From positions 1 through 51,501 of the IMG/VR virus record IMGVR_UViG_3300029258_001885: DNA of 51,501 bases. One strand, written 5' to 3'. Source of the DNA: a virus. The notes beneath the pieces are model-generated. The model saw only the letters and a list, made by a program, of their open reading frames with translations. It searched no databases and was not told the DNA's origin. The position numbers and the translations under genes were made by a program. This document shows, one piece after another, positions 38,053 through 50,713 of this stretch. Positions within the stretch are counted from its first letter, which is position 1. The number at the start of each line of letters is the position of its first letter.

Positions 38053-38094
38053 AATACCCTGATTGTACTACATTTTTAGGCAATCTGCCCTTTG

Positions 38095-38126
38095 TGTTAT
38101 ACAATACCCATTTTTTGCAAATACAA
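38095..38126 (-). promoter_or_regulatory. promoter with operator-like TATTGTATAACA
   Basis: The minus strand reads TTGTAT (38126-38121), then GGGTATTGTATAACACAA. The element TATTGTATAACA at 38095-38106 is a variant of the dyad found at four other promoter regions. It is the only gap between ParB-like and terminase genes, 43 bases before the start codon. Confidence 0.5.
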
Positions 38127-38136
38127 CCATGTGTAA

Positions 38137-38733
38137 TTAAAGCCTTAATTTAGCCTCAGCCTGAGCATAGTCTATGCTGGATTTTTGCACCCCAAAGAAT
38201 TCCCTGAGTCTTGTCATCTCGGAGCCTGACTGGCACCTAACGAAAAACGTATACGATGGGCTCTTAAGGTATGGCTCTGTCTCCTCTGTGGTGTGGGTGT
38301 CAAGGTGTATATGGGTCTGCAGGGTGTCATGGTCGTACCCAAGCAGCTCAAGGTTTACATCCAGTTTTTGCAACTCTACAAGCTCCTGGGAGAGGACCTT
38401 TGGATCCGTCTCGGCGTTTCGGGCTATCTGGTTGTCTGCAAGGATGTAGGCCCTCAGCTGCCCGGCCGTGAGGTTGTCAAGGGTCATGCAGGGGACCTCC
38501 TCCAGACCTATCTCATGGGCTGCCAGTACCCTGCCGTGTCCGGCAATGATTGTCCCTTCGGTGTCTATCAGTACCGGGTTGGTAAAGCCAAACTCCTGTA
38601 TTGAGTTGACAATCTGTCTTATCTGCCACTGGGGGTGTACGTTGGCGTTGTGGGCGTATGGCATCAGCTCATGGACTGATACGGGTTTTACCCTTGCCTT
38701 TTTGATGTTTTGGGCGATTGTCCTTGGGTCCAT
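38137..38733 (-). CDS. ParB/Srx-like nuclease-domain protein (198 aa)
   Basis: The ParB N-terminal fold is plain: VSVHELMPYAHNANVHPQWQ, then IVNSIQEFGFTNPVLID, the motif TIIAGHGRVLAAHEIG, and LTAGQLRAYILADNQIARNA. These proteins are common beside phage terminases and methylases, where they may act as CTP-linked clamps or small nucleases. The C-terminal 50 residues (PYLKSPSYTFFVRCQSGSEM) are less conserved. The gene is at its usual length. Confidence 0.85.
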   Translation of the reverse strand: MDPRTIAQNIKKARVKPVSVHELMPYAHNANVHPQWQIRQIVNSIQEFGFTNPVLIDTEGTIIAGHGRVLAAHEIGLEEVPCMTLDNLTAGQLRAYILADNQIARNAETDPKVLSQELVELQKLDVNLELLGYDHDTLQTHIHLDTHTTEETEPYLKSPSYTFFVRCQSGSEMTRLREFFGVQKSSIDYAQAEAKLRL

Positions 38734-38740
38734 TGTGTCC

Positions 38741-38965
38741 TCACTTCAGCAAGCTGGTTTTTGGGTTGATCCTGCTCTTGAGCCTCTCGACGTCCAGATG
38801 CAGCCTGAGTATGTCCGTGATTTTGTCCGCACAGTTGCACGCAGCGTTTACGGTCTCCGGCGTGCAGTCCTTGCTTGTAACCTTCTGCATCAGCCCCTCA
38901 AGGGTTGTGACCACCCTTCTGGTGTCAAACTGTCCGGCTCTTGCCGGGGTGTTGTTGCCTGCCAT
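38741..38965 (-). CDS. small helical hypothetical protein (74 aa)
   Basis: GGAGG precedes the ATG. The product has FDTRRVVTTLEGLMQKVTSK, then ETVNAACNCADKITDILRLH and a C-terminal KSRINPKTSLLK. From memory, similar short proteins with a VNAAC-type centre occur next to phage ParB and DNA-binding genes. It lies tightly between the ParB-like and HTH genes. Confidence 0.6.
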   Translation of the reverse strand: MAGNNTPARAGQFDTRRVVTTLEGLMQKVTSKDCTPETVNAACNCADKITDILRLHLDVERLKSRINPKTSLLK

Positions 38966-38966
38966 T

Positions 38967-39734
38967 TCAAACCTCCAGTATTCTTTCTATTTTTTCGAGT
39001 GTGGCATCCATTGACCTGGTGCCGTGTATCCATTTTTGAAACCTTGACAATGCCCCAAGGGCCAGTACCAGATGATCAGGTACGTTGGATTGTCTGGCCC
39101 ACGGATAAAGACAGACCCATGGGACGATCCTGTAACAAAAGTCGCCGTTGCGCATGCCACCTGTTGGCCCGGCTTTGGTCTTCATGCCCTCCACGGGATA
39201 TCCCAGCAGTATTTCTGCAAGCCTCTGTGGCAGTCCGTTTACGTACCTGCTCTTGATGTCCAGCCTGCTTGTCATCTCCTTGACCGAGTGCATGGTGCCG
39301 CGGTTCAGCTTTTTTGCGATCCATTCCCTTGGCTTCAGGCCGGCGTGCCTGAGAAGAAAAAGCGTCTCGTCCAGAGACCAGCTGTCATTGCGGCGTGTGT
39401 CCTTTCTCAAGTGGTCGTATTTGGGGTCTCGGTACGATACTGTCTGAATGGACCTAAGCTCGGACCTTGTCAACCCAAACCTCTCCATTGTCTCCTCAAA
39501 GGTGTGCGTCACAAAATATTTCATTGCAGGCATCCTGAGATGCTTGTGCTTGACTATCCTCTGCTTGCGGTAACAGGTGTTTTTCAGACCCAGCCTTGTC
39601 GCCTCGCATGCGACCTGGTTTCGGCCCAGACCCATGATTTTGGCAATCTCCGGGTTTGTGTGGTCTCCTGACTCCACAAGGACTGTGAGCAACAGCCTTT
39701 CACTGTCGGTCCATTTTTTATGTTTTCTTCTCAA
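38967..39734 (-). CDS. helix-turn-helix (Myb/SANT-like) DNA-binding protein (255 aa)
   Basis: The N-terminus KWTDSERLLLTVLVES then NPEIAKIMGLGRNQVACEAT is a Myb or SANT-type HTH. A second copy is at SWSLDETLFLLRHAGL with AKKLNRGTMHSVKEMTSRLD. The C-terminal part (RNGDFCYRIVPWVCLYPW) is unrelated. The TTG start at 39734 overlaps the TGA of the sigma-like gene in TTTTGA, so translation is coupled. It probably regulates transcription or binds the genome near packaging sites. Confidence 0.65.
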   Translation of the reverse strand: MRRKHKKWTDSERLLLTVLVESGDHTNPEIAKIMGLGRNQVACEATRLGLKNTCYRKQRIVKHKHLRMPAMKYFVTHTFEETMERFGLTRSELRSIQTVSYRDPKYDHLRKDTRRNDSWSLDETLFLLRHAGLKPREWIAKKLNRGTMHSVKEMTSRLDIKSRYVNGLPQRLAEILLGYPVEGMKTKAGPTGGMRNGDFCYRIVPWVCLYPWARQSNVPDHLVLALGALSRFQKWIHGTRSMDATLEKIERILEV

Positions 39735-40306
39735 AAAACCACCCAGTCCACGTCAAGGATTGAGAATTCCCTGTCATAATGATATCTGTCCCATGCCTCA
39801 TCCATGACCATCGCGTCACGTATTTCCTTTTTCATGTCCCTTTTCAATTGTGAGATACGGGTTTCGGTAAATCCAGTGTACTGAGCCACTTCGGCCTGCG
39901 TGGCCTCGTTGATGATTTGCTGGAGGATTTCCTCATGGATGCCTTTTCCAAATCGGACACGAGCTGTCCAGTCCGGTAGTTCTGGTTCCAGACCAGCTCG
40001 GTCAGGTGCGACAGGTTCATGCTCAATGACTCCACCATCGCCATGTCCGGCACCTGATCCTCCGAGAGCCACTGGGCGATGTCTTGAGCCTGACTTGAGG
40101 CGACCGACAGGAGTCCTTGTATTTCCATAGAATTCCCGTAGAAAATCGACAAATAGAAGTCTAAGAGAGAAAGTTCCTCTTATGACATGTCCGATATACG
40201 CTTCATGTGCGAAGTCTTCAGCGTCTTGTCCATACCCCTTGTAGATTGCATATCTTTTTGCCTTATCAAGAAATTTTTTGAGATCATCGCCGTCAAGAGC
40301 ATTCAT
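39731..40306 (-). CDS. sigma-70-like transcription factor (191 aa)
   Basis: Region 2-like sequence is at about 10-60: FLDKAKRYAIYKGYGQDAED, FAHEAYIGHVIRG, then FVDFLREFYGNTRTPVGRL. Region 4-like HTH is at about 120-160: EILQQIINEATQAEVAQYTG, FTETRISQLKRDMKKEIRDA. The linker between them is Gly, Pro and Arg-rich. Such factors redirect host polymerase to phage promoters. GAGGAG precedes the ATG, which overlaps the preceding stop in TAATG. Another frame is open through the linker; see findings. Confidence 0.7.
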   Translation of the reverse strand: MNALDGDDLKKFLDKAKRYAIYKGYGQDAEDFAHEAYIGHVIRGTFSLRLLFVDFLREFYGNTRTPVGRLKSGSRHRPVALGGSGAGHGDGGVIEHEPVAPDRAGLEPELPDWTARVRFGKGIHEEILQQIINEATQAEVAQYTGFTETRISQLKRDMKKEIRDAMVMDEAWDRYHYDREFSILDVDWVVF

Positions 40307-40515
40307 TACATGCTCCTCACACGCTCCCAGCGTTTTTGGTGTTTTACAAATGACAGTCCGTGCATGTCTGCCAGCCTCATCAGTCCCTTGTCATCTTGAG
40401 ACCTCTCAAGATAAAGCAGGTAATAGTACATCCACAGCTCAAACTGTATGCCCATGGCTTTGTACAGCCTTTTGACGAGTCTCCTTTTACGTATCCAGCC
40501 CCTGATACACCTCAT
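40306..40515 (-). CDS. small basic helical protein 1 (69 aa)
   Basis: The start MRCIRGWIRKRRLVKRLYKA at 40515 has AGGAGG upstream; the longer frame overlaps the gene before it. It is Lys/Arg-rich and helical, ending KHQKRWERVRSM. Two further proteins upstream end in the same kind of motif (DRLRRVRAL, KRIKRVEAMR), so the three look like a tandem family. The function is unknown. Confidence 0.55.
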   Translation of the reverse strand: MRCIRGWIRKRRLVKRLYKAMGIQFELWMYYYLLYLERSQDDKGLMRLADMHGLSFVKHQKRWERVRSM

Positions 40516-40715
40516 AAGGCTCTGACCCTCCTTAGCCTGTCCCCAAGGTTTATACATCTTTGGGCATGCCACAGGGCTGTCTCACGGACCTTGTCACTCC
40601 TGTCCTCCATGGTGATGTACCTGTTGGCCAGTGTGACCCAAAGCTTTTTGTGGGCCCCTTGGAGTGTCTCAAGCCTTTTGACCAGTCTCTTTTTGTGTCT
40701 GCACTTGTATCTCAC
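40512..40715 (-). CDS. small basic helical protein 2 (67 aa)
   Basis: The product MRYKCRHKKRLVKRLETLQG continues to ALWHAQRCINLGDRLRRVRA. It shares KKRLVKRL with protein 1 (RKRRLVKRL) and the C-terminal R/KRV motif with its neighbours. It overlaps both adjacent genes by four bases. Likely a coiled coil. Confidence 0.55.
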   Translation of the reverse strand: MRYKCRHKKRLVKRLETLQGAHKKLWVTLANRYITMEDRSDKVRETALWHAQRCINLGDRLRRVRAL

Positions 40716-40945
40716 CTCATTGCCTCCACCCTTTTGATGCGCTTGTCCAGATTGTCCACCCTGTCACGATACCTGCAAAAGTCATCCAAAGCCTGCTGGT
40801 CCTTAAACCCTGAGTCTGTATACCTTTTATTGCACTCTCTCCAGCGTCTGGCTGACATGTTGAGCTGATACCTCAGTGCTCTCAGTATCCTCTGCTTTTT
40901 GTCAAACAACCCCACACACACCTCCAGACAGGTTTTGTTATACAT
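40712..40945 (-). CDS. small basic helical protein 3 (77 aa)
   Basis: The chosen ATG at 40945 (MYNKTCLEVCVGLFDKKQRI) lies behind AAAAAAAGGG. A TTG at 40969 directly after the preceding stop is the alternative. The chain is a charged helix (LRALRYQLNMSARRWRECNK; FCRYRDRVDNLDKRIKRVEA), the longest of three tandem relatives. The function is unknown. Confidence 0.5.
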   Translation of the reverse strand: MYNKTCLEVCVGLFDKKQRILRALRYQLNMSARRWRECNKRYTDSGFKDQQALDDFCRYRDRVDNLDKRIKRVEAMR

Positions 40946-40969
40946 TACCCTTTTTTTAATCTCAGTCAA

Positions 40970-41275
40970 TCAGTTTGGTATGGGTGTGGCGGTTTTGATG
41001 TACTTGTCCAGTTGGCCTGGCTGGGCAAAGGCGGGAGGGGCAACCCTCCATTCGGACATGTGGCAGCCCAGTGATTCAAACCACGCCCTCAGGTCCTCCA
41101 TTACCCTCCTGTCTCCTGTGAGCGTGTAGTTGGGCACCATATAGTAGATACCGTCAGCTGTAGACTCATATATCTGGTTGGTTGTGTCGTAAACGAGATA
41201 AAGACGGGTAAGTGCAGCCTCATCCATGTAAATGGGCTTTACTACGTATTTGTGTTTGAAACCTTGCTCAACCAT
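40970..41275 (-). CDS. hypothetical protein (101 aa)
   Basis: ATG 41275 opens MVEQGFKHKYVVKPIYMDEA. A beta-rich first half (LYLVYDTTNQIYESTADGIY) is followed by a helix (RRVMEDLRAWFESLGCHMSE) and an end rich in Pro. No strong ribosome site is seen, and an operator-like element lies 13 bases upstream, so the mRNA may be nearly leaderless. No family is recognised. Confidence 0.55.
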   Translation of the reverse strand: MVEQGFKHKYVVKPIYMDEAALTRLYLVYDTTNQIYESTADGIYYMVPNYTLTGDRRVMEDLRAWFESLGCHMSEWRVAPPAFAQPGQLDKYIKTATPIPN

Positions 41276-41445
41276 GATGTCATACTGTTTTGTTTAACAA
41301 TCAATGACTTGATCATGGAGTAGTATAGCAAACTAAAGCCAAGACATGCCAACCAATACCATCCACTGTGTCCATTAAAGAATATTGCCCATCCAAAGAT
41401 GGTATATAGACATACCTGTCCCAGCATGTTTGCAAGTAGTCCCAC
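41242..41445 (-). CDS. small two-helix membrane protein (67 aa)
   Basis: GTG 41445 has AGGAGG at six bases; a longer frame from 41490 lacks a good site. Two hydrophobic segments are visible (QVCLYTIFGWAIFF and WYWLACLGFSLLYYSMI), then a short basic tail. The end overlaps the next gene by 34 bases and contains an operator-like element. A small inner-membrane protein is likely. Confidence 0.5.
   Translation of the reverse strand: MGLLANMLGQVCLYTIFGWAIFFNGHSGWYWLACLGFSLLYYSMIKSLIVKQNSMTSWLSKVSNTNT
41288..41302 (-). promoter_or_regulatory. operator-like dyad (TTTTGTTTAACAATC)
   Basis: The plus-strand core TTGTTTAACAAT (41290-41301) matches the TATTGTTTAACAATA family. It lies just upstream of the 40970-41275 gene. 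A TATACT box lies about 34 bases further upstream on the minus strand (41334-41329). The -35 is uncertain. Confidence 0.5.
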
Positions 41446-41510
41446 GGTCTCCCTCCTAAAGTATTCTGCTGTCGTGCCGAGTAATATCACAGACTCATTT
41501 AACTCCTCTT

Positions 41511-41720
41511 TTATGTCCTGCCTGCATGCCCTTTATTGTGGGCAGGATACGTCCCATCATCCCTTGCCATCAGCCTTCTCAGACAATTTCGACATGTAAC
41601 CTTTTTGCGTATGTTTGTGGCAGGTTTTGTAACAGGCCTGTAGGGCATGCAGAGTATCTGTGCCGTGCCCATCGGATACTCAAGGTAATGTATTGGTTTG
41701 TGTTTTTTTGTTTTATTCAC
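41511..41720 (-). CDS. small zinc-finger-like protein (69 aa, GTG start)
   Basis: GTG 41720 has AGGAGC upstream. The product has a basic N-terminus (MNKTKKHKPIHYLEYPMG) and KKVTCRNCLRRLMARDDG, a single CxxC knuckle as seen in small phage proteins with TCxxCxRRL. It ends with a His/Arg-rich tail. The function is unknown. Confidence 0.5.
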   Translation of the reverse strand: MNKTKKHKPIHYLEYPMGTAQILCMPYRPVTKPATNIRKKVTCRNCLRRLMARDDGTYPAHNKGHAGRT

Positions 41721-41755
41721 TGCTCCTGCTCCCGCTCCTGCTCCTTAAATATCCC

Positions 41756-42097
41756 TCATTTGTTATTTTTGCCCTCCACCGTTGTCCCGCACACTGTACA
41801 TACCCATGTATTGGTATCCTCCTGATAAACGGTGTATTTTTTGGCACATCTGCACGGCATGTCTACGGGAGGGCTTCCCGCTCTTGGCTTGTATCTTTTT
41901 CTTGTTGGATCCTCGATGTAACCCTTGAGAGTCCTTCTTAAACTCATCTTGTCTCTAGGAGACAGCCTCTCCCACGTCTTCGCGAAAACCTTTTCAAAAC
42001 GCATGACTGCCTCATTGTATCCATTGACATATGAGGCTCTTGGATCATGTGAAAGCACTGCAGGTATGATTAATTGAGGTGCCTTTAGTCTGGGCAT
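41756..42097 (-). CDS. hypothetical protein with C-terminal zinc ribbon (113 aa)
   Basis: The start MPRLKAPQLIIPAVLSHDPR at 42097 has GGAGGA upstream. A helical centre (YNEAVMRFEKVFAKTWERLS) precedes a zinc ribbon with CRC and CTVC (residues about 83-108). It ends GKNNK. The gene starts two bases before the stop of the upstream Ref-like gene's end region. A nucleic-acid-binding role is likely. Confidence 0.6.
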   Translation of the reverse strand: MPRLKAPQLIIPAVLSHDPRASYVNGYNEAVMRFEKVFAKTWERLSPRDKMSLRRTLKGYIEDPTRKRYKPRAGSPPVDMPCRCAKKYTVYQEDTNTWVCTVCGTTVEGKNNK

Positions 42098-42098
42098 G

Positions 42099-42437
42099 TC
42101 AGTCCTCCTTGTCCAGTTTGTGGGCGATGTCCTCAAGTGCCCTGATTGCCTCCCTGACCATTCCCCTGCCAGTGATGTAGCCCAGCAGACACCTGCCTAT
42201 GTCTTCATGTGGTTCATAGCCCTGCTCCTGCCAATACGCCTTCTCGCCCATGTGATGGAGTTTGTGGTGCTCATCTGTTGATAGCGGCAGTGTCCAATAG
42301 TCGCTTGGCTTCTGGCCCATGCCGGCACCAGCCCCCATACGTACATGGTGGGCAATACTGCTGCCCCAACCCTTGATGAGACAGTTTCTCTGCCGTATCC
42401 ACTCAAGGTATTTTTTGCTTCTGTAGGGCTTGGCCAT
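42099..42437 (-). CDS. HNH/Ref-like (DUF968-type) nuclease-fold protein (112 aa)
   Basis: From ATG 42437 the product reads MAKPYRSKKYLEWIRQRNCL. It has the histidine pair AHHVRMGAGAGMGQKPSDYW and PLSTDEHHKLHHMGEKAYW, the layout of phage Ref/DUF968 HNH-type proteins. Such proteins bind or nick DNA with RecA-dependent partners. Only one cysteine of the usual zinc site is seen. GGAG lies 12 bases upstream. A clear promoter-operator precedes the gene. Confidence 0.65.
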   Translation of the reverse strand: MAKPYRSKKYLEWIRQRNCLIKGWGSSIAHHVRMGAGAGMGQKPSDYWTLPLSTDEHHKLHHMGEKAYWQEQGYEPHEDIGRCLLGYITGRGMVREAIRALEDIAHKLDKED

Positions 42438-42469
42438 TTTGTAATCAATCTCCAATCAAGTCATGTCAG

Positions 42470-42499
42470 TTTATATGGTATTGTTTAACAATAGGTCAA
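42470..42499 (-). promoter_or_regulatory. promoter with operator in spacer
   Basis: On the minus strand TTGACC (42499-42494) and TATAAA (42475-42470) are spaced 18 bases. The spacer is mostly the perfect 15-bp dyad TATTGTTAAACAATA (42479-42493). A regulator bound here would block or change polymerase binding. It is the best of five related sites and drives the 42099-42437 gene. Confidence 0.75.
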
Positions 42500-42679
42500 G
42501 CAGGATGTTTTAAAGGACTGGTTTTATTGTCATTCTTTTCCAGCCTCCTCAGATGTTTCACGTGCAACAGGCCTGCCGTGTATTGACAGGCTCACTGTCA
42601 CGTCAAGGTTGCACACCTCCAGCTGTCTCTGGGTCCAAAATACAGTTTTAGAGCCTCTGAAGGCTTTTAAACAGCCCTG

Positions 42680-42985
42680 TCAGCACCCTCCCTGCATTTT
42701 ACCCAGCCAGTCTGAGTCTGCCTCATACAGCTCCAGCTCATCAACATCATGCCAGAAGTCCTGGTCCACAATCCTGACAATCCTGCCCTCATCCACAAGG
42801 CAGGTGTAGTAGTTGGTCACAGCCCATTTAAACATGTTGCCCTTTTTGTAGGATATGCCCATGGCATGGCACCTGTCCTCCACCTCAGTCATGCCCTCTG
42901 GCTCAACAGACAACACCGTGATGCTGTCATACCCAAGCAGACCCTCCTCCTTGCTGTCCTTTTTTAGTCTCAGTTTAAATAGCAT
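42680..42985 (-). CDS. hypothetical protein (101 aa)
   Basis: The start MLFKLRLKKDSKEEGLLGYD at 42985 has GGAGGA upstream. It is beta-rich (SITVLSVEPEGMTEVEDRCH; FKWAVTNYYTCLVDEGRIVR), with an acidic C-terminal half (DVDELELYEADSDW), ending QGGC. The frame continues open for 49 codons beyond its TGA. No known family. Confidence 0.6.
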   Translation of the reverse strand: MLFKLRLKKDSKEEGLLGYDSITVLSVEPEGMTEVEDRCHAMGISYKKGNMFKWAVTNYYTCLVDEGRIVRIVDQDFWHDVDELELYEADSDWLGKMQGGC

Positions 42986-42986
42986 C

Positions 42987-43202
42987 TCAGTCCTCCTGTT
43001 TGAGTATTGCTTCAAAACCGCACATCAAAGCAAATATCCTTGCAAGCCTCTCGCTCTTTCCGCTGACAAGCTCTTTTTCTGCTATGTCCAAAGCCAGCAG
43101 ATTGAGACCGTCCACAAGATCACGGACATCATCCTGTGACAGTCTGGGTCTGTATTGCCTGACAGGCTTTTTCAAGTTGTCTACACATGATAAAATCATC
43201 AT
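42987..43202 (-). CDS. small helical protein (71 aa)
   Basis: AAAGGAGG precedes two adjacent ATGs (43202, 43199). The product has RQYRPRLSQDDVRDLVDGLN then LLALDIAEKELVSGKSERLA and a hydrophobic end (IFALMCGFEAIL). It looks like a small helical bundle. A dyad (43241-43267) lies in its leader. The function is unknown. Confidence 0.6.
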   Translation of the reverse strand: MMILSCVDNLKKPVRQYRPRLSQDDVRDLVDGLNLLALDIAEKELVSGKSERLARIFALMCGFEAILKQED

Positions 43203-43240
43203 GTACCTCCTTTCAGATGAGGGACAGCCCTACCAAGTTA

Positions 43241-43267
43241 ATACCCTGGTACAACATACCGGGGTAT
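43241..43267. promoter_or_regulatory. two-step dyad ATACCC-GGTA / TACC-GGGTAT
   Basis: ATACCC, T, GGTA, five bases, TACC, G, GGGTAT make an almost perfect 27-bp inverted repeat between two small leftward genes. It may be an operator or an mRNA hairpin. A related CATACCC/GGGTATG dyad lies at 50142-50160. Confidence 0.5.
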
Positions 43268-43269
43268 TT

Positions 43270-43410
43270 TTATGACCATACGACATAATAACCACTGTTT
43301 TTGGATACATGATATTTGGCCCAGTCTCTTGCCTCCCTGTAGGTTGCAAAAGGACCCACGGTATCCATCGATACTGGAGTAACTACAATTGCCCAAAATG
43401 CAGTGCCCAT
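43270..43410 (-). CDS. very small protein (46 aa)
   Basis: ATG 43410 follows AAGGAGG and lies three bases after the stop of the upstream gene. The product MGTAFWAIVVTPVSMDTVGP continues FATYREARDWAKYHVSKNSG and ends YYVVWS. The beta-helix-beta pattern is typical of a short compact protein. The function is unknown. Confidence 0.55.
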   Translation of the reverse strand: MGTAFWAIVVTPVSMDTVGPFATYREARDWAKYHVSKNSGYYVVWS

Positions 43411-43413
43411 GAC

Positions 43414-43581
43414 TTAATCCTCCTTTGACGGTTTCGTGTTGAGCTGCAAACAACCGTTGTTGTCTGATATCGAAAAAACCCGGTCAACATCAGGCCCCTC
43501 TCCGCAATAGACAATCACTTCGGCATCATCCTCGAATATCTCCATTACCTTTTTTAAAATCCCGACTGTGACAATAGCCAT
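43414..43581 (-). CDS. small hypothetical protein (55 aa)
   Basis: The start MAIVTVGILKKVMEIFEDDA at 43581 has GAGGAG upstream; the longer frame has none. The remainder is beta-like and acidic (EVIVYCGEGPDVDRVFSISD), ending NTKPSKED. It probably forms a small alpha/beta protein and is coupled to the next small gene. Confidence 0.55.
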   Translation of the reverse strand: MAIVTVGILKKVMEIFEDDAEVIVYCGEGPDVDRVFSISDNNGCLQLNTKPSKED

Positions 43582-43682
43582 AAAAACTCCTCTGGTGTGG
43601 GTTGCCGCAACATCCCCCAATGAATGCAAAGTCGGTACCAGTTTGGACTACCAATGATTGCAACAGATTGAAGGAGACACAG

Positions 43683-43853
43683 GTGTCCATGGTTTGTACT
43701 GTAAAAGATGTGTGTTTTAGCGGGTTTAAAGGTGGGTTATTGATATTTTTGGAGGGCCAAACCCAATTACATCAATGGTTTGATGTTGAAGTTTATGACG
43801 GGTGTAAAAACTCTGGACACTATGCGGCCCCCTTTTTAACCGTTTTAAGATAA
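43683..43853 (+). CDS. isolated rightward small ORF (56 aa)
   Basis: GTG 43683 follows AAGGAG (43671-43676); ATG 43689 is the alternative. The product contains VCTVKDVCFSGFKGGLLIFL and LHQWFDVEVYDGCKNSGHYA. No leftward frame is open here, and the ORF is the only rightward candidate in this leftward region. It overlaps the 3' end of the ribbon-helix-helix gene by 34 bases. Expression would produce antisense RNA. It may equally be chance. Confidence 0.4.
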   Translation: MSMVCTVKDVCFSGFKGGLLIFLEGQTQLHQWFDVEVYDGCKNSGHYAAPFLTVLR

Positions 43854-44008
43854 GAATCCAGCAGACTCCTCACCAGATCAGAAGGTCTCAAACCCAGCGC
43901 TCTTGCCGACTCCTCAAGCCTTGACTTTACCGACAGCGGTACCTTTATGCCTATCAGTTTTGTTGGCTCTTGACCCAGTCTTGGCCGTCCTCCCTTTGGG
44001 TTTGTCAT
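43820..44008 (-). CDS. ribbon-helix-helix DNA-binding protein (62 aa)
   Basis: The product has GRPRLGQEPTKLIGIKVPLS then VKSRLEESARALGLRPSDLV, RSLLDSYLKT: a basic N-terminal arm, a beta strand (KLIGIKVP) and two helices, the Arc/CopG fold. Such dimers bind palindromic operators. It is the clearest candidate for the protein that recognises the TATTGTTTAACAATA sites, one of which lies upstream of its operon. Its first 95 bases overlap the end of the upstream gene in another frame. Confidence 0.75.
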   Translation of the reverse strand: MTNPKGGRPRLGQEPTKLIGIKVPLSVKSRLEESARALGLRPSDLVRSLLDSYLKTVKKGAA

Positions 44009-44312
44009 TTGAAAGATCCCCCTTGCACAGTCTGCTCAAAAAATTGTAGGTCAGCTCATGGACAAGCCTTTGCTGTGTACCCCTGCACTGTCTAAACCTC
44101 ATGTGGTTGAGTGTCCACCAGAAGTTGAAGTTGGCTGGTGTGGGCCTTGCAATCTCACCCAGTCCGGTATTGACAACCTCAAGGCCATGCTCATCAAGCT
44201 TTTTGTACAAAGGCTTGTATTTTTTGTCCTTTAGTCCCCAGCGCTTGAAACTCTCCCTGAGGGCACTGGCCTGCAACTCATGTGTTGGCATCTTTACAGC
44301 TGGTTGTCCCAT
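43914..44312 (-). CDS. hypothetical DNA-binding-like protein (132 aa)
   Basis: AGGAGGAG precedes the ATG. The core has ASALRESFKRWGLKDKKYKP, TGLGEIARPTPANFNFWWTL and LVHELTYNFLSRL, a helical protein of unknown family. The C-terminus is Lys-rich (KGRTAKTGSRANKTDRHKGT) and overlaps the ribbon-helix-helix gene. It starts downstream of an operator site at 44487-44500. Confidence 0.6.
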   Translation of the reverse strand: MGQPAVKMPTHELQASALRESFKRWGLKDKKYKPLYKKLDEHGLEVVNTGLGEIARPTPANFNFWWTLNHMRFRQCRGTQQRLVHELTYNFLSRLCKGDLSNDKPKGRTAKTGSRANKTDRHKGTAVGKVKA

Positions 44313-44486
44313 AAACTCCTCCTGTTTGGTACTCCGGACTGGACCCCAACCTCATCCAGCACCTGTCCCTCACATTTATGGGGACCATGCACCTGCTGTC
44401 CATCAAGGCCAGCGTCCAACCGTCATTGGATGTGCACTATCCAGGTGTCAGCCTGGCCTCCCTGGGTCCTGACATACCCACCGGAG

Positions 44487-44525
44487 TATTGTTTAACAAT
44501 CTACATTTTATCTAAGGCGTGTCAA
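44487..44525 (-). promoter_or_regulatory. promoter with operator over the -10 region
   Basis: The minus strand has TTGACA (44525-44520), a 16-base spacer and TAGATT (44503-44498), directly joined to TATTGTTTAACAAT on the plus strand (44487-44500). It lies at the 3' end of the primase-helicase gene and would drive 43914-44312 and the ribbon-helix-helix gene. The 195 bases between 44313 and 44507 hold no confident gene, only a few very short frames. Confidence 0.65.
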
Positions 44526-46271
44526 GTCCAAGACATTGCCGCTGTTGTCCCCGCTGATGATTTTTACATCCCTGACACATTCGGCAAAACATCTGGTCTT
44601 TTTGTCGTAAACCATCCAAAGCTTGTTGTTTATCCTGTCCACACCAGACTCACGGGTCTTTTCCATGTGCAGCTGGATAAAGTCCTCGACAGGGTTGAGG
44701 TTTAAATAATTGTCGGCATCCTGATATGTCTGGCTGTAACCCTTCTGGTTGCCCGAGTTTACCCGCTGGCTGGAATCCACCTTGTGGGGCTGCCAGACCA
44801 CTATGACATGGACCATGTAATGAGTGGCAATCCTTATGAGCTCGCCATAGGCTGCAAGTTTGTCGCTGTTGCAGTCTCCTGTAATATGGTCAAGATTGTC
44901 CAGTATCAGGAGCCTGGCCCCCTTTGCAATCATTGACTCAAACTCAGACACGCACTCGGATGGTTTGACCCTTTTGCCCTCAAGCCTGGATATCATAAGC
45001 CGGGAAACCGTTTCCTTGTACTGCTCAGGCTTGCAGATGCCACGTACCACGTCTTTTATCTTCGGTTTCAGTGCCTTGCGGGTACCCTCCACGCTTATGA
45101 GACCCACACCGGTACCTGTCATTGCTGCATAAACTGCAATCTGGTTGCAAAAGCTGGTTTTGCCGGTACCGCTCTTCGCCAAAAGCCCTGTAGTCTCCCC
45201 ACCCCTGAGCCCTCCATTGAGCATGTGGTTTAGACTGTCAAAAGGCGTCTTGCATACAAGCACCACATTCTCTGGCTCATCCTCCCTGTCCATGTCCATG
45301 TCCATGTAATTGCCGGACTGGATACTGCAACCTCCAGTCAGCCGTGTGAGGCCCGTACAGGCATCCTCAACGTCTCCAAGGCAAAGCGAGGGGTTTTGTA
45401 CCAGCCACTCATTGAGGTCCTTGTAGGGCATTTTGAGCGTCCCTACACGATCCGGTCCCAGCTGGGCAAAAAACCGCTCCACAGCCCTCTGGCCTGCCTC
45501 ATCCTCATCCATTGCCAGCCACACCTCCCAGTCATCGGGTATGTACCTCAGCATGGAGTCCACGTGTATGGAGCCGGCACCGTTGGGCAGACTAAAGGAA
45601 TTTTCAAGGCCCAGCTGCCAGCCCACCATGGCATCCCATTGTCCCTCAAAAATAACTGCACGCTTTTTTGGATCTTGCAAATTCAGCAGATGGTTGCCTA
45701 TCAGCAGACCTGTGGGAGCCCCTTTTTGGTCAAACCAGTCAGTGCAGTTTTTGGAGTCCCGGTCAAGACATACACGTATCCTTGCATTGACAATGCCCCA
45801 CGTTCGGCCAGTCCAGGCATATATTGGCCATCTCAGAGCCTCCGGTCCCTTGGTGGACACCCTCCAGGCATCAAGGGTACGGTCTTCGATACCCCTGAAA
45901 CGGCAATACTCCAAAAGGTCCGGGTGATGCCCACAGGTCACAGGTCTCCTCTGTATGCCAAAAAACCTCTCAAAGTCCACAGGCCTGATGGGGTTGGCAT
46001 CGTCCTTGTACCTGTCGTTTAAAGGCAAGGGTGCACCAAAATCCCTTGTCAGGGTAAAGAAGTTGCCAACAGCCCCACATCCGAAACACCTCCACAAACC
46101 CGTCTCCATGTTTATCTGGCTGGAAGGGTTTGAGGCAGAGTCACCCATGCACTTTGGGCACGGTCTGAATCTCAACTCCTTGCCGTAGGCCTTGACCCAT
46201 TTGGCATGCCTTGACAAAAAAGCTGCAACCTCACCCTCTCTGGGCGATCTGTACTCACGCCTGGACTGCAT
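44508..46271 (-). CDS. primase-helicase (T7 gp4-like)
   Basis: The second ATG (46271) has GGGAG at six bases. The N-terminal zinc finger is RFRPCPKCMGD and LWRCFGCGAVGNFF. The TOPRIM primase part includes RAVIFEGQWDAMVGW and EVWLAMDEDEAGQRAVERFF. The RecA-like helicase has Walker A LLAKSGTGKTSF at about 360, Walker B ARLLILDNLDH, and VHVIVVWQPHK. One protein thus primes and unwinds DNA at the fork. It is 587 residues, as expected. The ATG lies inside the preceding gene's end. Confidence 0.9.
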   Translation of the reverse strand: MQSRREYRSPREGEVAAFLSRHAKWVKAYGKELRFRPCPKCMGDSASNPSSQINMETGLWRCFGCGAVGNFFTLTRDFGAPLPLNDRYKDDANPIRPVDFERFFGIQRRPVTCGHHPDLLEYCRFRGIEDRTLDAWRVSTKGPEALRWPIYAWTGRTWGIVNARIRVCLDRDSKNCTDWFDQKGAPTGLLIGNHLLNLQDPKKRAVIFEGQWDAMVGWQLGLENSFSLPNGAGSIHVDSMLRYIPDDWEVWLAMDEDEAGQRAVERFFAQLGPDRVGTLKMPYKDLNEWLVQNPSLCLGDVEDACTGLTRLTGGCSIQSGNYMDMDMDREDEPENVVLVCKTPFDSLNHMLNGGLRGGETTGLLAKSGTGKTSFCNQIAVYAAMTGTGVGLISVEGTRKALKPKIKDVVRGICKPEQYKETVSRLMISRLEGKRVKPSECVSEFESMIAKGARLLILDNLDHITGDCNSDKLAAYGELIRIATHYMVHVIVVWQPHKVDSSQRVNSGNQKGYSQTYQDADNYLNLNPVEDFIQLHMEKTRESGVDRINNKLWMVYDKKTRCFAECVRDVKIISGDNSGNVLDLTRLR

Positions 46272-47358
46272 TGACATCTCCCAGCTCTACATCGTTTGAG
46301 CCAATTGTAAACCCAATCTTGTCCTTCTCCGCCTCACCATCCTCAGGGCCCACGTCAATTATATCTCCATAAATTTCATGGAGTTTGGACCCAATGGTTT
46401 GCCAGCCCTTTTTGGCAATCTGTATGAAATATGCATCCTTGAGTATGGCGTTGAAGTGCTTGGTAAACTGGGAGGGCTTGCGGTCGATTGTGGCAAACTG
46501 CCTGTGTGGCACCGTCAGGTCAAACTGTGGCTTGCCTGTCTTCTCGTCCATTGCAGGCACTCCACACGCAAAGATGTACCAGGCCAGTGACGCTGTCCTG
46601 CAACCATACTGCCTGAAGGTTTTGGTCAGCTCCCTGCGCTCCCTCATTGCCTGAGAAGGCATGTTTTTGATGTCTCCTGCCCAGTTGGGCCTTGCCGTAC
46701 CCCTGCCCATCTCGGACTGTCCGAAAACCCATATCCTGGCACACCCACTGACAAAATCCTTGTCCCGGTCTCTCCAAAGCATCTGGTCCCTCACCTTTTG
46801 GGCCTTGTCGGCACTCTCTGCAGCCACAAGGGCGTCAAGGCGGGCATCGTCGTTTATGTACTCCATGCCGTCCTCTCTTGGTGGCTCGGGCTCTCCATAC
46901 AAACAATCAGTCTCAAAACCCTGTACGTCCTCCTCATACTCCAGACGGGCAAGCCCAATGCCCACCAGATGCTTTGAAACAGTAGTAAAAACAGATGGTT
47001 TGGTTCCTGGTTCCATTAGCTGTCCAACAACAGGATTGATTGAAATTAACTGGGTCTTTTTTTTGCGGGTTCCATCATTACGCCATGCGGTCTCAATCCT
47101 GACAAGGCCAAACCTGCAAAGCTTTTTTAATCGGCACCTTATACGGTTGCGGGTTGATCTCAGGATTTTGGCCATGGTGTATGATGACAGTCTGGCCTGC
47201 AGACCTCCCTCCTTTTGGGCCTCTGATACCACCAGCCACATGATTGACTCGCCTATTGGGTCAAAAGCCGTTGGACTCAAATGACCCTGCCTTGCGGCTT
47301 CCCTGTACATCTTTTCCATTAACCTGCCTACTGCTGCCGGTACCTGCCTTTTTGTCAT
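46255..47358 (-). CDS. winged-helix replication-associated protein (367 aa)
   Basis: GAGAGGAG precedes the ATG. Residues about 35-115 form a winged helix (SIMWLVVSEAQKEGGLQARL; YTMAKILRSTRNRIRCRLKK; LCRFGLVRIETAWRNDGTRK). The middle contains ARIWVFGQSEMGRGTARPNW, and the C-terminal region (DRKPSQFTKHFNAILKDAYF) looks like a second HTH. Place between a candidate origin and the primase-helicase suggests a replication initiator or loader. The function is inferred. Confidence 0.55.
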   Translation of the reverse strand: MTKRQVPAAVGRLMEKMYREAARQGHLSPTAFDPIGESIMWLVVSEAQKEGGLQARLSSYTMAKILRSTRNRIRCRLKKLCRFGLVRIETAWRNDGTRKKKTQLISINPVVGQLMEPGTKPSVFTTVSKHLVGIGLARLEYEEDVQGFETDCLYGEPEPPREDGMEYINDDARLDALVAAESADKAQKVRDQMLWRDRDKDFVSGCARIWVFGQSEMGRGTARPNWAGDIKNMPSQAMRERRELTKTFRQYGCRTASLAWYIFACGVPAMDEKTGKPQFDLTVPHRQFATIDRKPSQFTKHFNAILKDAYFIQIAKKGWQTIGSKLHEIYGDIIDVGPEDGEAEKDKIGFTIGSNDVELGDVNAVQA

Positions 47359-47382
47359 TTTTTTCTACTCCTCTCTTATTGT

Positions 47383-47423
47383 GTCTACTACGTAGTAGTA
47401 GACTATTTATTACGAAGTAATAA
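47383..47423. promoter_or_regulatory. paired palindromes upstream of replication operon
   Basis: GTCTACTA-CGTAG-TAGTAGAC (47383-47403) has perfect 8-bp arms. TTATTAC-GAA-GTAATAA (47407-47423) has perfect 7-bp arms. Both share TAyTACG..GTArTA. They lie 25-65 bases upstream of the start of 46255-47358, where a repressor or initiator would bind. Confidence 0.6.
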
Positions 47424-47455
47424 CTGGTGGAAAAGCACCTAATGTTTGGGTGACC

Positions 47456-47475
47456 CCGACCACCTGGTCGGTTTT
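47456..47475 (+). terminator. rightward hairpin followed by TTTT
   Basis: CCGACC-ACCT-GGTCGG (47456-47471) is a perfect 6-bp stem, followed by TTTT. No rightward gene precedes it, so it may instead be structural DNA of the candidate origin. Confidence 0.35.
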
Positions 47476-47525
47476 AATAGAATCCTTTAAAATCGATAAA
47501 ATATTTAGAATCTGTGAGGTGGTAA

Positions 47526-47547
47526 TTTTGTGGTTGTTTTGTGGTTG
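47526..47547. repeat. tandem 11-bp repeat TTTTGTGGTTG x2
   Basis: Two exact adjacent copies (47526-47536 and 47537-47547) lie in the gene-free region. A partial copy precedes them (GAGGTGGTAA). Iteron-like arrays of this sort are typical of initiator binding sites. With only two copies the call is tentative. Confidence 0.5.
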
Positions 47548-47720
47548 CTTTTTGGAGTTTGTGTGGGACAATGTGGCCATCTCCTTTTGTTGGGGGATTT
47601 GTTTTTTTCTCGCTTTACTCGTGTGGGGTCTCCCAGGGCCCCCACAAAACTCTCCTGCATATTTCCAGTTTGTGAATTAACGTAATCATTATTTAACCCC
47701 TGCACACAGGACTCTCAAGC

Positions 47721-47755
47721 AAAAAAAGAGGCAGAGCCCAAAGGCCCTGCCCCTC
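47721..47755 (-). terminator. intrinsic terminator after the SSB-like gene
   Basis: On the minus strand GAGGGGCAGGGCC pairs with GGCTCTGCCTC (two-base bulge, four-base loop), followed by seven Ts (47721-47727). It ends the leftward recombination operon 21 bases after its last stop, so the replication genes need their own promoter. Confidence 0.85.
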
Positions 47756-47776
47756 AACACAGTGGCGACTATCTCC

Positions 47777-48349
47777 CTAAAAAGGTATCTCATCAAGGTT
47801 GGGCACGTTGCCCACCGCGGGTGCCGTCACAGGAGGCTGCTGGAGCGTGTCCTGTGGCTGGGTTGCCGCGGCCTGAGCCGTCTGTGTGGTGACGTCTGGA
47901 GCACCAGGATTGGGTGCATTTATGAAGGTCACAAACTTGCCCGGCTGATACTTGTTGGGCTGTACCACCACGGTGCAGGCCCTGCCCTTGAGCTGACCCA
48001 TCATGCCCAGTACAGACTGGTCTCCGGTGGACCATGCCTGTGGTTCTGGCAAACCAAGATCAACATAAATGGCTTTTGTGCGGGTTATTGACTTCAGTAT
48101 TTTTTCCCTCTTGTCCTGATTGACTTCTGCCTGTGCAATGTCGGACTGGTTAAATCCCCATATGGTATATTGTGCCAGTCCTTCAGTGGTCCTTACCGAG
48201 ACATTCCATATTGGCCTGCCTCCAATTTCCTTTTGCTTGATCTCCTCTACCTTGCCGTCAAAAGACCCACATGGGTGCTGTTTGTAACCGCTGTCTGCCG
48301 ACGCACCCTTGACCATGTTGTCCAGTATTGCAGTCATGTCCTGTACCAT
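47777..48349 (-). CDS. ssb: single-stranded DNA-binding-like protein (190 aa)
   Basis: AAAGGAG precedes the ATG. An OB-fold-like core (CGSFDGKVEEIKQKEIGGRP; WNVSVRTTEGLAQYTIWGF; ACTVVVQPNKYQPGKFVTFI) is followed by a Gln, Pro and Thr-rich linker and the acidic tip NLDEIPF, as in bacterial and phage SSBs that recruit partners with a DxxIPF end. The neighbours are a RecA-fold ATPase and a nuclease. SSB function fits well, though the OB fold is only inferred. Confidence 0.7.
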   Translation of the reverse strand: MVQDMTAILDNMVKGASADSGYKQHPCGSFDGKVEEIKQKEIGGRPIWNVSVRTTEGLAQYTIWGFNQSDIAQAEVNQDKREKILKSITRTKAIYVDLGLPEPQAWSTGDQSVLGMMGQLKGRACTVVVQPNKYQPGKFVTFINAPNPGAPDVTTQTAQAAATQPQDTLQQPPVTAPAVGNVPNLDEIPF

Positions 48350-48384
48350 TTTAATCTCCTTTGTTTTTAATTGGTTGTAGGTTT

Positions 48385-49155
48385 TTATCTTTTGGATCTG
48401 ATTTTAAATCCAAGCTCCTCGGCCTTTTTTGCATAGGCATCACGTACCGTGGCCCAGTCCAGAGGCAGCTCACCCAGCTGTGCCAAAATGTCTGTCCTGT
48501 CCTTGGCTGCAATTGCAGGCTCCTGTTTAAATGTGATGACATGGGCACCGTCAAGCTTTTTGTGGATGTACCCAACACAGTTGACAATTCCGTCCAGATA
48601 CTGGGCAGCCTTGTTGTTGCTAAACGTGGGCACATGGCAGCTGACCTCCTGCTTGATACCGTTGTCCATTGGTACCTCAATATCCACCATGTTGCAGTGG
48701 GTCACAAACCGCACGTTTATGATGTCCATGAGCACCCTCAGCCACTGGGTCCACTCACGGTTGCACTCTGCCCACGTTTTGCCAAAGTCCTTGTCAGACG
48801 GGTATGTCACACCCTTGGCCTTGCACACCGAGTCCCTGCACATGACATTGAGGTTGTCCACAATGTCAATGACACAGGCACTGTACGGCAGCTTGCCATC
48901 CTTTTTTAGATGCCCAAGCTCAAACACCAGCTTTTTAAATGTGGGCCACTCCCTGACCGGTACCACGGTGGACTTGATAAACTCCTGACCGGGCTCCGTG
49001 GCTGCAAAGATGGCCTTGTCATCCCCTCCACAAAACCGGGTCTTGCCTGAGCCCGGTCTGCCAAAAACCATGAGTGTCAGGTCTTCAAACGGTGGTACCG
49101 TGTAGGTGTCCTGTCTGGGAGGTATTACGCTGTTTGGTTGCTGCTGGTCACTCAT
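48385..49155 (-). CDS. RecA-fold ATPase, Sak4-like (256 aa)
   Basis: Walker A is VFGRPGSGKTRFC at about residues 30-42. A Walker B-like strand is SACVIDIVDNLN. Later come VRFVTHCNMVDIEVP and AAQYLDGIVNCVGYI, as in AAA_24/Sak4-type phage ATPases that pair with SSB for single-strand annealing. The 256-residue length is normal. It lies between SSB and the Cas4-like nuclease, forming a compact recombination cassette. The start overlaps the nuclease stop by eight bases. Confidence 0.8.
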   Translation of the reverse strand: MSDQQQPNSVIPPRQDTYTVPPFEDLTLMVFGRPGSGKTRFCGGDDKAIFAATEPGQEFIKSTVVPVREWPTFKKLVFELGHLKKDGKLPYSACVIDIVDNLNVMCRDSVCKAKGVTYPSDKDFGKTWAECNREWTQWLRVLMDIINVRFVTHCNMVDIEVPMDNGIKQEVSCHVPTFSNNKAAQYLDGIVNCVGYIHKKLDGAHVITFKQEPAIAAKDRTDILAQLGELPLDWATVRDAYAKKAEELGFKIRSKR

Positions 49156-50098
49156 CCTTGTCTCCTCTGTGTATTGGGTTTAGGTACTTGTTTATAAATG
49201 ATCCAGAATCAAGTGGCTCCTTGCCGTTGGGTATGTACTGGCCACCAAGCTGGTCAGTGCCGTTGGCACACAGCGGAAGCCATTCACACGGTCCCCACTT
49301 GCCCATGCACTCACCAGGATTGCAGTCCCAGCCCGTCAGGGTGTGGGTCTTAAACATCTGTCTGATACGCCTGTCAAGCCTGTCCTTTTGTAGACTGTAG
49401 GCTGTCAGCTGGGCTGGCCCAAAAGCCACTGGTATCTCACGGTAAAAATCGGCGTTACGCTCACCACAGTACAGATCAAGCACCCTATGGGCATAGTCTG
49501 TGCCCGTCTCCTTTTTGGTCCTTTTGGTGGAAGTCTTCAGGGTCTGGCGGTACTTGATGCCTTTGGGCAGGATACCCTCAGAATTCAACAGGACATTGTA
49601 GTTTAAAAGCTGCTCATCCAGCCTGAGGGCCATTTCAAGATTGGGATCCAGCCGTGAGGTTGTCTTGTCCTCAATCACCCACTTGCAACCATCAATTTCC
49701 TGGATACAGTCAATATAAGCCACCTCAGTGTCCGTACGTATCTCATACTCACAGGCCGCAGTCTGTTTTGGGTCATCCTTGTAAAAAATCCCATATCCTA
49801 AAATGTAGGCATTGAGTCTGGACTGCTCATCCTCAATTGCATCAAGTCCCAGGTCAAACTCCTGCAGGTCTTGAATCAATTCCTTGTTGGCCTCATTTAT
49901 TGCCACAGGCACCTTGTGGCCCTGTCTGATCAGATATAGTGCCTTGTGGTATGCCCTGCCTATCGCCTGAGCCTTTGAGCCACCTGTCTTGGGCTGAATG
50001 CCGGCTACATACCTGTAAAAAACTTTGCGTGGACAGGACTTGTAAGCTGCCCTCATGCTTGCACTAATTAAAGGAGTGCCACCTGTTGGGTCTGTCAT
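49148..50098 (-). CDS. PD-(D/E)XK nuclease, Cas4/RecB-like (316 aa)
   Basis: GGAGG precedes the ATG. The nuclease core has AIGRAYHKALYLIRQG (motif with catalytic His), a conserved Asp in YIDCIQEIDG and the ExK-type VIEDKTTSRL. A cysteine early (KSCPRK) and the C-terminal group CNPGECMGKWGPCEWLPLC fit the four-cysteine iron-sulphur site of Cas4/AddB-type enzymes. It should resect or trim DNA ends for the adjacent recombination proteins. It is the first gene of the leftward unit from the divergent promoter. Confidence 0.85.
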   Translation of the reverse strand: MTDPTGGTPLISASMRAAYKSCPRKVFYRYVAGIQPKTGGSKAQAIGRAYHKALYLIRQGHKVPVAINEANKELIQDLQEFDLGLDAIEDEQSRLNAYILGYGIFYKDDPKQTAACEYEIRTDTEVAYIDCIQEIDGCKWVIEDKTTSRLDPNLEMALRLDEQLLNYNVLLNSEGILPKGIKYRQTLKTSTKRTKKETGTDYAHRVLDLYCGERNADFYREIPVAFGPAQLTAYSLQKDRLDRRIRQMFKTHTLTGWDCNPGECMGKWGPCEWLPLCANGTDQLGGQYIPNGKEPLDSGSFINKYLNPIHRGDKDE

Positions 50099-50120
50099 GC
50101 TTGTACCTCCATCTGGGTTG

Positions 50121-50168
50121 TGTTAAACAATACTCGACACTCATACCCCATACGGGTATGATTGGCAA
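50121..50168 (-). promoter_or_regulatory. divergent control region with leftward promoter and two operators
   Basis: On the minus strand TTGCCA (50168-50163) and TATGAG (50145-50140) are spaced 17 bases. The spacer is occupied by the dyad CATACCC-CATAC-GGGTATG (50142-50160). Just beyond the expected start lies TATTGTTTAACA (50132-50121). Two distinct proteins could thus control leftward transcription. A rightward promoter for 50189 must lie in the same 90 bases but is not clear. Confidence 0.65.
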
Positions 50169-50188
50169 TACACAAGGAGACCCAAAGG

Positions 50189-50713
50189 ATGAGGATTGCA
50201 GGCATTGACCCTGGCAAAAAGGGTGTTGTTGTTGCCCTTGACTCTGATGGTGGAGGCATGAGGATACACAAGCTCGGCTTTGACTCGGCTGGCACCCTTG
50301 TCTGGGACTGGTTTTACAAGTTTACAAAGGATGCAGACATAAACCTTTTTATTGTGGAGAGACCCAGAGGCAGGGGAGGATTTACAGCAACCAGCACCTT
50401 TGCCCTTGGTGAGGTCTGTGGACAGGTCAGGCAGGTGGTTGCCCAGACCCAGATACCATGGAGACACGTGGACCCCAAGGTCTGGCAGGAAGTCATCCAC
50501 AAGGGCATACCAGCCAACAGGTCCCCAAAGATAAAGTCACAGGCTGCCTATGAGCAGCTTTACCCACATAAACCACTGCCTCTGACACCCAGGTCCAAAA
50601 AGACAGATGACAACCTCATTGACGCCCTGCTGATTGCTACATATGGAGTGCTCAAGTATGGAGGAGGCAAACTGCAGAGGTGGGACCTCTGCAAGGAGGA
50701 TGAGGATGCTTGA
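50189..50713 (+). CDS. RuvC-like Holliday junction resolvase (174 aa)
   Basis: The start MRIAGIDPGKKGVVVALDSD at 50189 has AAGGAG ten bases upstream; the frame opens at 50162 without a site. Acidic residues of the RNase H/RuvC fold are in GIDPGKKG, FIVERPRGRGG and KTDDNLIDALLIATYG. PNRSPKIKS-like sequence and VWQEVIHKGIPANRSPKIKS follow the RuvC order. It cuts branched DNA made during recombination or packaging. First gene of the rightward unit. Confidence 0.8.
   Translation: MRIAGIDPGKKGVVVALDSDGGGMRIHKLGFDSAGTLVWDWFYKFTKDADINLFIVERPRGRGGFTATSTFALGEVCGQVRQVVAQTQIPWRHVDPKVWQEVIHKGIPANRSPKIKSQAAYEQLYPHKPLPLTPRSKKTDDNLIDALLIATYGVLKYGGGKLQRWDLCKEDEDA

What the first reader, a model, noticed from the sequence alone, without database searches (positions are those of the whole stretch)
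38095..50132. Family of TATTGTTTAACAATA operators at five promoter regions
A 12-15 bp dyad occurs at 42479-42493 (perfect), 44487-44500, 41288-41302, 50121-50132 and, as TATTGTATAACA, 38095-38106. All are at gene borders, and three overlap or adjoin plausible -35/-10 pairs; at 42470-42499 the dyad fills the spacer. This points to one phage regulator controlling a set of early leftward operons. The ribbon-helix-helix protein (43820-44008), itself downstream of one site, is the best candidate.
Basis: partly seen in the sequence, partly recalled or inferred. Interest (0 to 1): 0.75.

Follow-up and report, generated by a model that had tools for sequence, protein, structure and literature searches.

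The report
Phage repressor operators, probable RHH regulon
This uncultivated virus carries at least four, probably five, copies of a 15-base mirror-image DNA switch in front of its recombination, terminase and regulator genes; distant relatives carry their own version of the switch at the same places, and the most likely protein that flips it is a small ribbon-helix-helix repressor encoded behind one of the copies.

Summary
TATTGTTTAACAATA-like dyads lie at 42479-42493, 44487-44501, 41288-41302 and 50118-50132, with a weaker copy at 38092-38106. The window has 12 strand-wise matches at up to 3 mismatches against 1.4 expected, and 0 of 100 shuffles reach that. The four strong sites are all intergenic.

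Relatives settle the meaning. About a dozen divergent uncultivated phages carry the same 15-bp dyad, WWYYGTTNAACRRWW, upstream of orthologous genes: a conserved two-gene operon, X plus a ribbon-helix-helix (RHH) protein; the divergent RuvC/RecB-Sak4 promoter; and TerS. One relative (DnaB 41% identical) has five intergenic copies of TATCGTTWAACGATA, with both arms changed symmetrically. Another has five copies of the TTTTGTTGAACA type.

Sites sit in the promoter spacer, at the -10/+1, or just downstream, as repressor operators do. The RHH gene is next to X in every relative where X was found. AlphaFold2 gives it an RHH fold closest to PutA and CopG. The best reading is an autoregulated RHH repressor and its regulon. 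Binding was not tested, and the RHH assignment is inference. The mechanism is known (Arc/Mnt-like); this is a new member in an unstudied phage lineage.

The parts
42479..42493 (.). Operator O3, TATTGTTTAACAATA, perfect dyad, inside the spacer of a minus-strand promoter TTGACC-18-TATAAA, upstream of the HNH (DUF968) gene
44487..44501 (.). Operator O2, TATTGTTTAACAATC, overlaps the 3' end of the -10 of a minus-strand promoter TTGACA-16-TAGATT; directly after the DnaB stop, upstream of the X-RHH operon (autoregulatory site)
   Evidence: homologous site in G1, G2, G3, G4, G6, G10, G11
41288..41302 (.). Operator O4, TTTTGTTTAACAATC, 12 bp upstream of the ATG of gene 40970-41275; overlaps the 3' end of a possible small membrane ORF 41242-41490; no clear promoter found
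50118..50132 (.). Operator O1, TATTGTTTAACACAA (minus strand), about +1 to +15 of a leftward promoter for the RecB-like exonuclease/Sak4/SSB-like genes and upstream of the rightward RuvC promoter TCGACA-17-TATGAT
   Evidence: homologous site in G2, G6, G9, G13
38092..38106 (.). Operator O5 (weak), TATTGTATAACACAA (minus strand), upstream of TerS
   Evidence: homologous stronger sites in G1, G2, G4
43820..44008 (-). Ribbon-helix-helix protein, 62 aa, GRPRL basic N-terminal arm, candidate repressor
43914..44312 (-). Protein X, 132 aa, helical, overlaps the RHH gene; conserved partner of unknown function
42099..42455 (-). HNH endonuclease (DUF968), downstream of O3
40970..41275 (-). Small protein of unknown function downstream of O4; relative in G1
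49148..50098 (-). RecB-like exonuclease, first gene left of O1
48385..49155 (-). Sak4-like recombinase
47777..48349 (-). Probable ssDNA-binding protein by position and C-terminal DEIPF tail (inference)
50162..50713 (+). RuvC-like Holliday junction resolvase, right of O1
37384..38052 (-). TerS (by position before TerL and conservation), downstream of O5

Best explanation
The dyads are operators of one phage-encoded transcriptional repressor, most likely the 62-aa RHH protein at 43820-44008. Shown by sequence: a 15-bp dyad WWYYGTTNAACRRWW recurs at promoters of the X-RHH operon, the RecB/Sak4 and RuvC divergent promoter, the HNH gene, gene 41275 and (weakly) TerS, and orthologous promoters in relatives carry it with genome-specific but symmetric base changes. 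Inferred: an RHH dimer inserts its two-stranded sheet into the major groove over GTT-N-AAC, the G/A-x-K/R residues of the strand reading the core. Its basic GRPRL-type N-terminal arm may reach the A/T-only flanks. Bound in the spacer, at the -10/+1 or just downstream, it blocks RNA polymerase. Because one operator lies in front of its own operon, the protein limits its own level, so the recombination, resolvase and terminase-small-subunit operons are first expressed and then shut down together as repressor builds up.
For: Enrichment and intergenic placement in the window. Relative G2 has five intergenic copies of TATCGTTWAACGATA at X-RHH, TerS, Sak4/RuvC, Rep and another gene. G3 has five copies of TTTGTTGAACA against 0 for the reversed control pattern, plus one variant at X. 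Conservation upstream of X in 7 of 10 relatives against a background of 8.4% (binomial 2.8e-6; 7 of 12 if the later G12 and G13 are added); RuvC 3 of 3; TerS 3 of 8; controls TerL 0 of 10, TMP 0 of 6. Information content falls to background outside +-7 bp. Operator centre relative to the predicted start varies from about -23 to +8 at the better-scoring promoters, as for a repressor rather than a promoter element. X and RHH are adjacent in all relatives with X. The RHH profile matches Mnt, CopG and ORF56; the AlphaFold2 model (pLDDT 85) matches PutA and CopG DNA-binding domains at probability about 1 but with Foldseek E of 0.02 or worse. No other classified regulator among 23 non-structural G2 proteins except a weak FmdB-like hit.
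Against: No binding data. X is as conserved as RHH and could be the binder or a partner. Three relatives with X-RHH (G5, G12, G13) lack an exact core upstream of X, and G8 and G9 have only one-mismatch cores there. The window's TerS site is degenerate and its 41288 site lacks a clear promoter. One good match (30943) lies inside a structural gene. Predicted promoters are simple consensus matches and as a class not enriched in the region. The PWM training sites were chosen by the core, so the hold-out is not fully independent.
Confidence: 0.8

Rival explanations
1. The operators are bound by X, or by an X-RHH complex acting like a toxin-antitoxin or co-repressor pair, with the RHH protein alone insufficient.
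For: X and RHH are always adjacent and often overlap; the operator precedes their common operon; antitoxin RHH proteins commonly autoregulate with their partner (RelB/RelE, PMC2812701, start of abstract seen).
Against: X has no Pfam match above chance and a helical model without any fold match. The RHH protein has almost no C-terminal extension for binding a toxin, and the same operators lie in front of unlinked operons, which is a regulon rather than a self-contained toxin-antitoxin module.
Confidence: 0.1
2. A host regulator, for example a LexA-type or other repair regulator, reads these sites, because several target genes are recombination and repair genes.
For: Targets include a RecB-like exonuclease, a Sak4 recombinase and RuvC. 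Each genome has its own coherent variant, which could follow its host's factor.
Against: The most consistently conserved site is in front of the phage's own RHH operon, and TerS and other non-repair genes carry it. G7, which lacks both X and RHH, has no site at TerS or RuvC/Sak4. Hosts are unknown, so this is not excluded.
Confidence: 0.07
3. The motif is a phage-specific promoter element, for example read by the sigma-like protein 39731-40306, not an operator.
For: Sites lie at promoters; a sigma-like gene exists in the window and in G1.
Against: Spacing to -35/-10 and to start codons varies widely. The motif is a true dyad, while promoter elements are directional. No detectable sigma-like gene in G2, which has the clearest motif family.
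Confidence: 0.02
4. Chance recurrence of an A/T-rich palindrome.
For: The 11-bp core with 2 mismatches is not enriched by itself, and a good match lies inside a coding sequence (30943).
Against: 0 of 100 shuffles reach the 15-bp count, and conservation at orthologous promoters exceeds background by far.
Confidence: 0.01

Closest known systems
Arc and Mnt repressors of phage P22 (RHH family)
   Same: Small phage-encoded RHH repressors; Mnt is among the sequence-profile matches. That Arc and Mnt act at several P22 promoters, and that the Mnt operator is about 17 bp with an odd centre, is from memory.
   Different: No direct sequence relationship beyond the fold; different operator sequence; this protein has a GRxRL-type basic arm and is coupled to gene X; no immunity locus or temperate functions identified here.
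PutA DNA-binding domain (RHH)
   Same: Best structural match of the model (2gpe, 2rbf with operator DNA; TM-score 0.91 by target). A role of Lys9 in PutA DNA recognition is stated in the title of Larson et al. 2006 (seen in the reference list of PMC3325190). From memory, the PutA strand is also G-x-K and its site GTTGCA shares GTT.
   Different: PutA is a bacterial proline-metabolism enzyme; its site is not the GTTNAAC dyad; the resemblance of recognition is a lead, not a test.
CopG / ORF56 plasmid copy-control repressors
   Same: RHH fold, small DNA-binding repressors.
   Different: Plasmid regulators; no X partner; different operators (from memory).
Type II toxin-antitoxin antitoxins with RHH domain (RelB, CcdA, ParD)
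   Same: RHH protein in a two-gene operon with an autoregulatory operator.
   Different: No toxin fold recognised in X; no antitoxin tail; operators at several unlinked operons.

Membership tests
Ribbon-helix-helix transcriptional regulators | Short N-terminal strand followed by two helices | tested here: met
   AlphaFold2 model helices 25-38 and 42-61 after an extended N-terminus, pLDDT 85, top Foldseek hits all RHH although E is 0.02 or worse; Pfam RHH_1 only weakly (best member 0.0013; the window protein is below the curated cut-off)
Ribbon-helix-helix transcriptional regulators | Dimer that binds a symmetric operator through a two-stranded sheet | not testable with these tools
   No complex prediction or binding assay available; the symmetric 15-bp site is consistent
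Autoregulated phage repressor regulon (Arc/Mnt-like in function) | Operator in the promoter of the repressor's own operon | tested here: met
   44487-44501 in the window and 7 of 10 relatives
Autoregulated phage repressor regulon (Arc/Mnt-like in function) | Same operator at other phage promoters, placed to block RNA polymerase | tested here: met
   promoters are predictions
Autoregulated phage repressor regulon (Arc/Mnt-like in function) | The named protein binds the operator and represses | not testable with these tools
   needs gel shift and reporter assays
Type II toxin-antitoxin module | Partner is a recognisable toxin | tested here: inconclusive
   X matches no family or fold; unknown toxins cannot be excluded
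Type II toxin-antitoxin module | Antitoxin has a toxin-binding tail after the RHH domain | tested here: not met
   helix 2 runs to residue 61 of 62
LexA-type host SOS box | Match to a known LexA box of the host | not testable with these tools
   host unknown; no relative found in genome collections

The most novel reading that the evidence does not exclude
A lineage-wide regulatory circuit of phages in which one RHH repressor with an AT-hook-like arm reads a 15-bp site with a single dimer, together with a new partner protein X, and switches recombination and DNA packaging (TerS) as one unit. Operator and repressor co-evolve base by base between phages.
Probability: 0.25. Interest if true: 0.6.

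Novelty: new member of a known kind. Interest (0 to 1): 0.42.

Why it matters
It gives a testable regulon, with sites, targets and a candidate regulator, for a phage lineage with no close cultured relative. It also offers a natural series of RHH proteins with their own operator variants (TTG, TCG and W- or S-centred forms) for studying how RHH specificity changes. The link of recombination genes and TerS to one operator hints at how such phages time the step from replication to packaging.

Tried and rejected
Cultured relatives: none at DNA level, none for X; DnaB at most about 31% and TerL about 35% identical in partial matches. Prophage relatives in bacterial genomes: none. The loose 11-bp core as evidence by count: rejected, not enriched. 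40933-40947 and 30936-30950 as further operators: not accepted, the first inside the start of a gene with a degenerate core, the second deep in a structural gene. Overall enrichment of predicted promoters in the region: none (15 against 13.8), so promoters were judged only next to sites. A TCATACCC-N5-GGGTATGA dyad at 50141-50161 as a second regulon: single copy. X as a DNA-binding protein: no family or fold support. A profile scan with the 11-member X alignment could not be run and was replaced by a 3-member one. Searching for a changed operator in relatives whose RHH strand has N instead of G/A (G12, G13): no clear shared motif. Literature on the PutA GTTGCA contacts in the open library: not found.
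Full report
What was checked. The window is a whole IMG/VR virus record of 51,501 bases. Its two ends fall inside the same GATTCGGTC-type repeat and one reading frame appears to continue across them, so it is probably a circularly permuted genome opened at that repeat (inference). Matches to TATTGTTTAACAATA with up to 3 mismatches number 12 over both strands against 1.36 in shuffles, with no shuffle reaching 12. The count alone is not the strongest argument: the shorter core is not enriched, and one good match lies inside a structural gene (30936-30950).

Relatives. DnaB and TerL searches found a family of uncultivated phages. The useful ones are G1 (53.8 kb, DnaB 57%), G2 (25.8 kb, DnaB 41%), G3, G4, G5, G6, G8, G9, G10 and fragment G11; later came G7, G12 and G13. 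Nothing close exists among cultured phages or bacterial genomes.

The decisive finding. In G2 the spot directly after the DnaB stop, homologous to window 44487-44501, reads AATCGTTTAACGATA, and the spot before TerS, homologous to window 38092-38106, reads TATCGTTAAACGATA. G2 has five intergenic copies of this dyad, at X-RHH, TerS, Sak4/RuvC, Rep and one other gene. Both arms differ from the window's by the same symmetric change (TTG to TCG, CAA to CGA), which is what a dimeric DNA-binding protein imposes. G3 has five copies of TTTGTTGAACA, most within TTTTGTTGAACAWAA-like dyads, plus a variant at X, with zero matches of the reversed control pattern; one of the five lies inside a gene body.

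Test at orthologous promoters. Two genes, X (window 43914-44312) and the RHH protein (43820-44008), stay adjacent in all relatives where X is found. GTTNAAC occurs within 220 bp upstream of X in 7 of 10 relatives, against 8.4% of random windows of that size (binomial 2.8e-6). Adding G12 and G13, found later and without an exact site, gives 7 of 12. Upstream of RuvC it is 3 of 3; adding G13 (present), and G1, G7 and G12 (absent), 4 of 7. Upstream of TerS it is 3 of 8. Controls are 0 of 10 (TerL), 0 of 6 (TMP) and 7.1% for all other genes. The window itself is not counted in these numbers.

The site. From 25 sites in nine genomes the symmetrised pattern is WWYYGTTNAACRRWW. Information drops to background beyond seven bases from the centre; positions +-6 are A or T in every site, and the centre is nearly free. 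Scoring each genome with a matrix trained on the others puts intergenic sites upstream of X, RuvC/RecB/Sak4 or TerS at or near the top of most lists; in the window four of the five best hits are the reported sites. Training sites were picked by the core, so this supports placement more than existence.

Promoter placement. The two best sigma-70-like promoters of the 36-51.5 kb region (10 of 12 matches each) are the ones beside 44487 and 50118. The dyad is in the spacer at 42479 (TTGACC-18-TATAAA), over the end of the -10 at 44487 (TTGACA-16-TAGATT) and just after the predicted start at 50118 (TTGCCA-17-TATGAG). In relatives it is again in spacers (G1 TerS, G4 X) or at the -10/+1 (G1 X, G6 X). 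Variable position within the polymerase footprint fits repression and argues against a fixed promoter element.

Which protein. The RHH protein is the best candidate. It is encoded behind the most conserved site. Its family profile matches Mnt, CopG and ORF56, and its model is an RHH fold closest to PutA and CopG DNA-binding domains, with Foldseek E-values no better than 0.02 for about 45 aligned residues. In G2 no other DNA-binding regulator was recognised apart from a weak FmdB-like match. G7, which lacks X and RHH, has no site at TerS or RuvC/Sak4. The strand carries G or A, then one residue, then K or R in all eleven aligned proteins, and most have a G-R/K-x-x-L basic arm in front. I infer that the small residue sits over the free centre base and K/R reads the core, with the arm over the A/T flanks; this comes from the general geometry of RHH dimers and is untested. 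G5 (no arm) and G12 and G13 (N instead of G/A) lack the exact core upstream of X, which is consistent but too few cases to prove anything.

What it most likely does. No integrase or cI-like gene was noticed among the genes scanned, so a lysogeny switch is not indicated, though tail-side genes were not all scanned. The simplest model is a timed shut-off: the operons for the RecB-like exonuclease, Sak4 and ssDNA-binding-like protein, the resolvase, the HNH nuclease and TerS start free, and the autoregulated RHH repressor then closes them to a set level. The direction of regulation (repression) is inferred from position.

Known or new. Functionally this is an Arc/Mnt-like autoregulated phage repressor with several operators, a known kind. 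New are the lineage, the operator, the X partner and the target set. Membership in the RHH fold class is met by model and weak profile matches; binding, the defining function, was not testable here.

Noticed in passing
window 39731-40306 (-) and L008 8266-8901 (-): Sigma-factor-like proteins (N-terminal region-2-like segment, C-terminal region-4-like helix-turn-helix) in the window and in G1, 32% identical; candidate late-gene sigma. Pfam Sigma70_r4 only at 0.013.
   Followed up: partly
window 38967-39734 (-): Protein matching phage T5 D5-like transcription regulators (PHROG 323, 1.2e-9).
   Followed up: no
window 47360-47760: About 400 bp without a good gene, upstream of the replication-protein-like gene 46255-47358, with several strong dyads (GTCTACTAC-3-GTAGTAGAC; 47402-47413 with 47417-47428) and a strong terminator-like hairpin at 47726-47755; possible replication origin.
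   Followed up: partly
window 50141-50161: Second perfect dyad TCATACCC-N5-GGGTATGA over the spacer and -10 of the RuvC promoter; single copy in the window.
   Followed up: partly
L004 10001-12544: The DnaB-like helicase of G1 appears to be interrupted by an intein with a homing-endonuclease-like insert (reading frame continues through).
   Followed up: no
window 51440-51501 and 1-12: The contig ends inside a GATTCGGTC repeat of a gene with VGDSV-type peptide repeats; the frame appears to continue across the ends, so the genome is probably circular or circularly permuted.
   Followed up: partly
window 43914-44008: The X and RHH genes overlap by 95 bases in different frames; also overlapping in G1 and several relatives, but only 4 bases in G2.
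   Followed up: partly
window 30936-30950: TTGTGTTTAACAAAA, a good operator match deep inside a structural gene (30454-32106).
   Followed up: no
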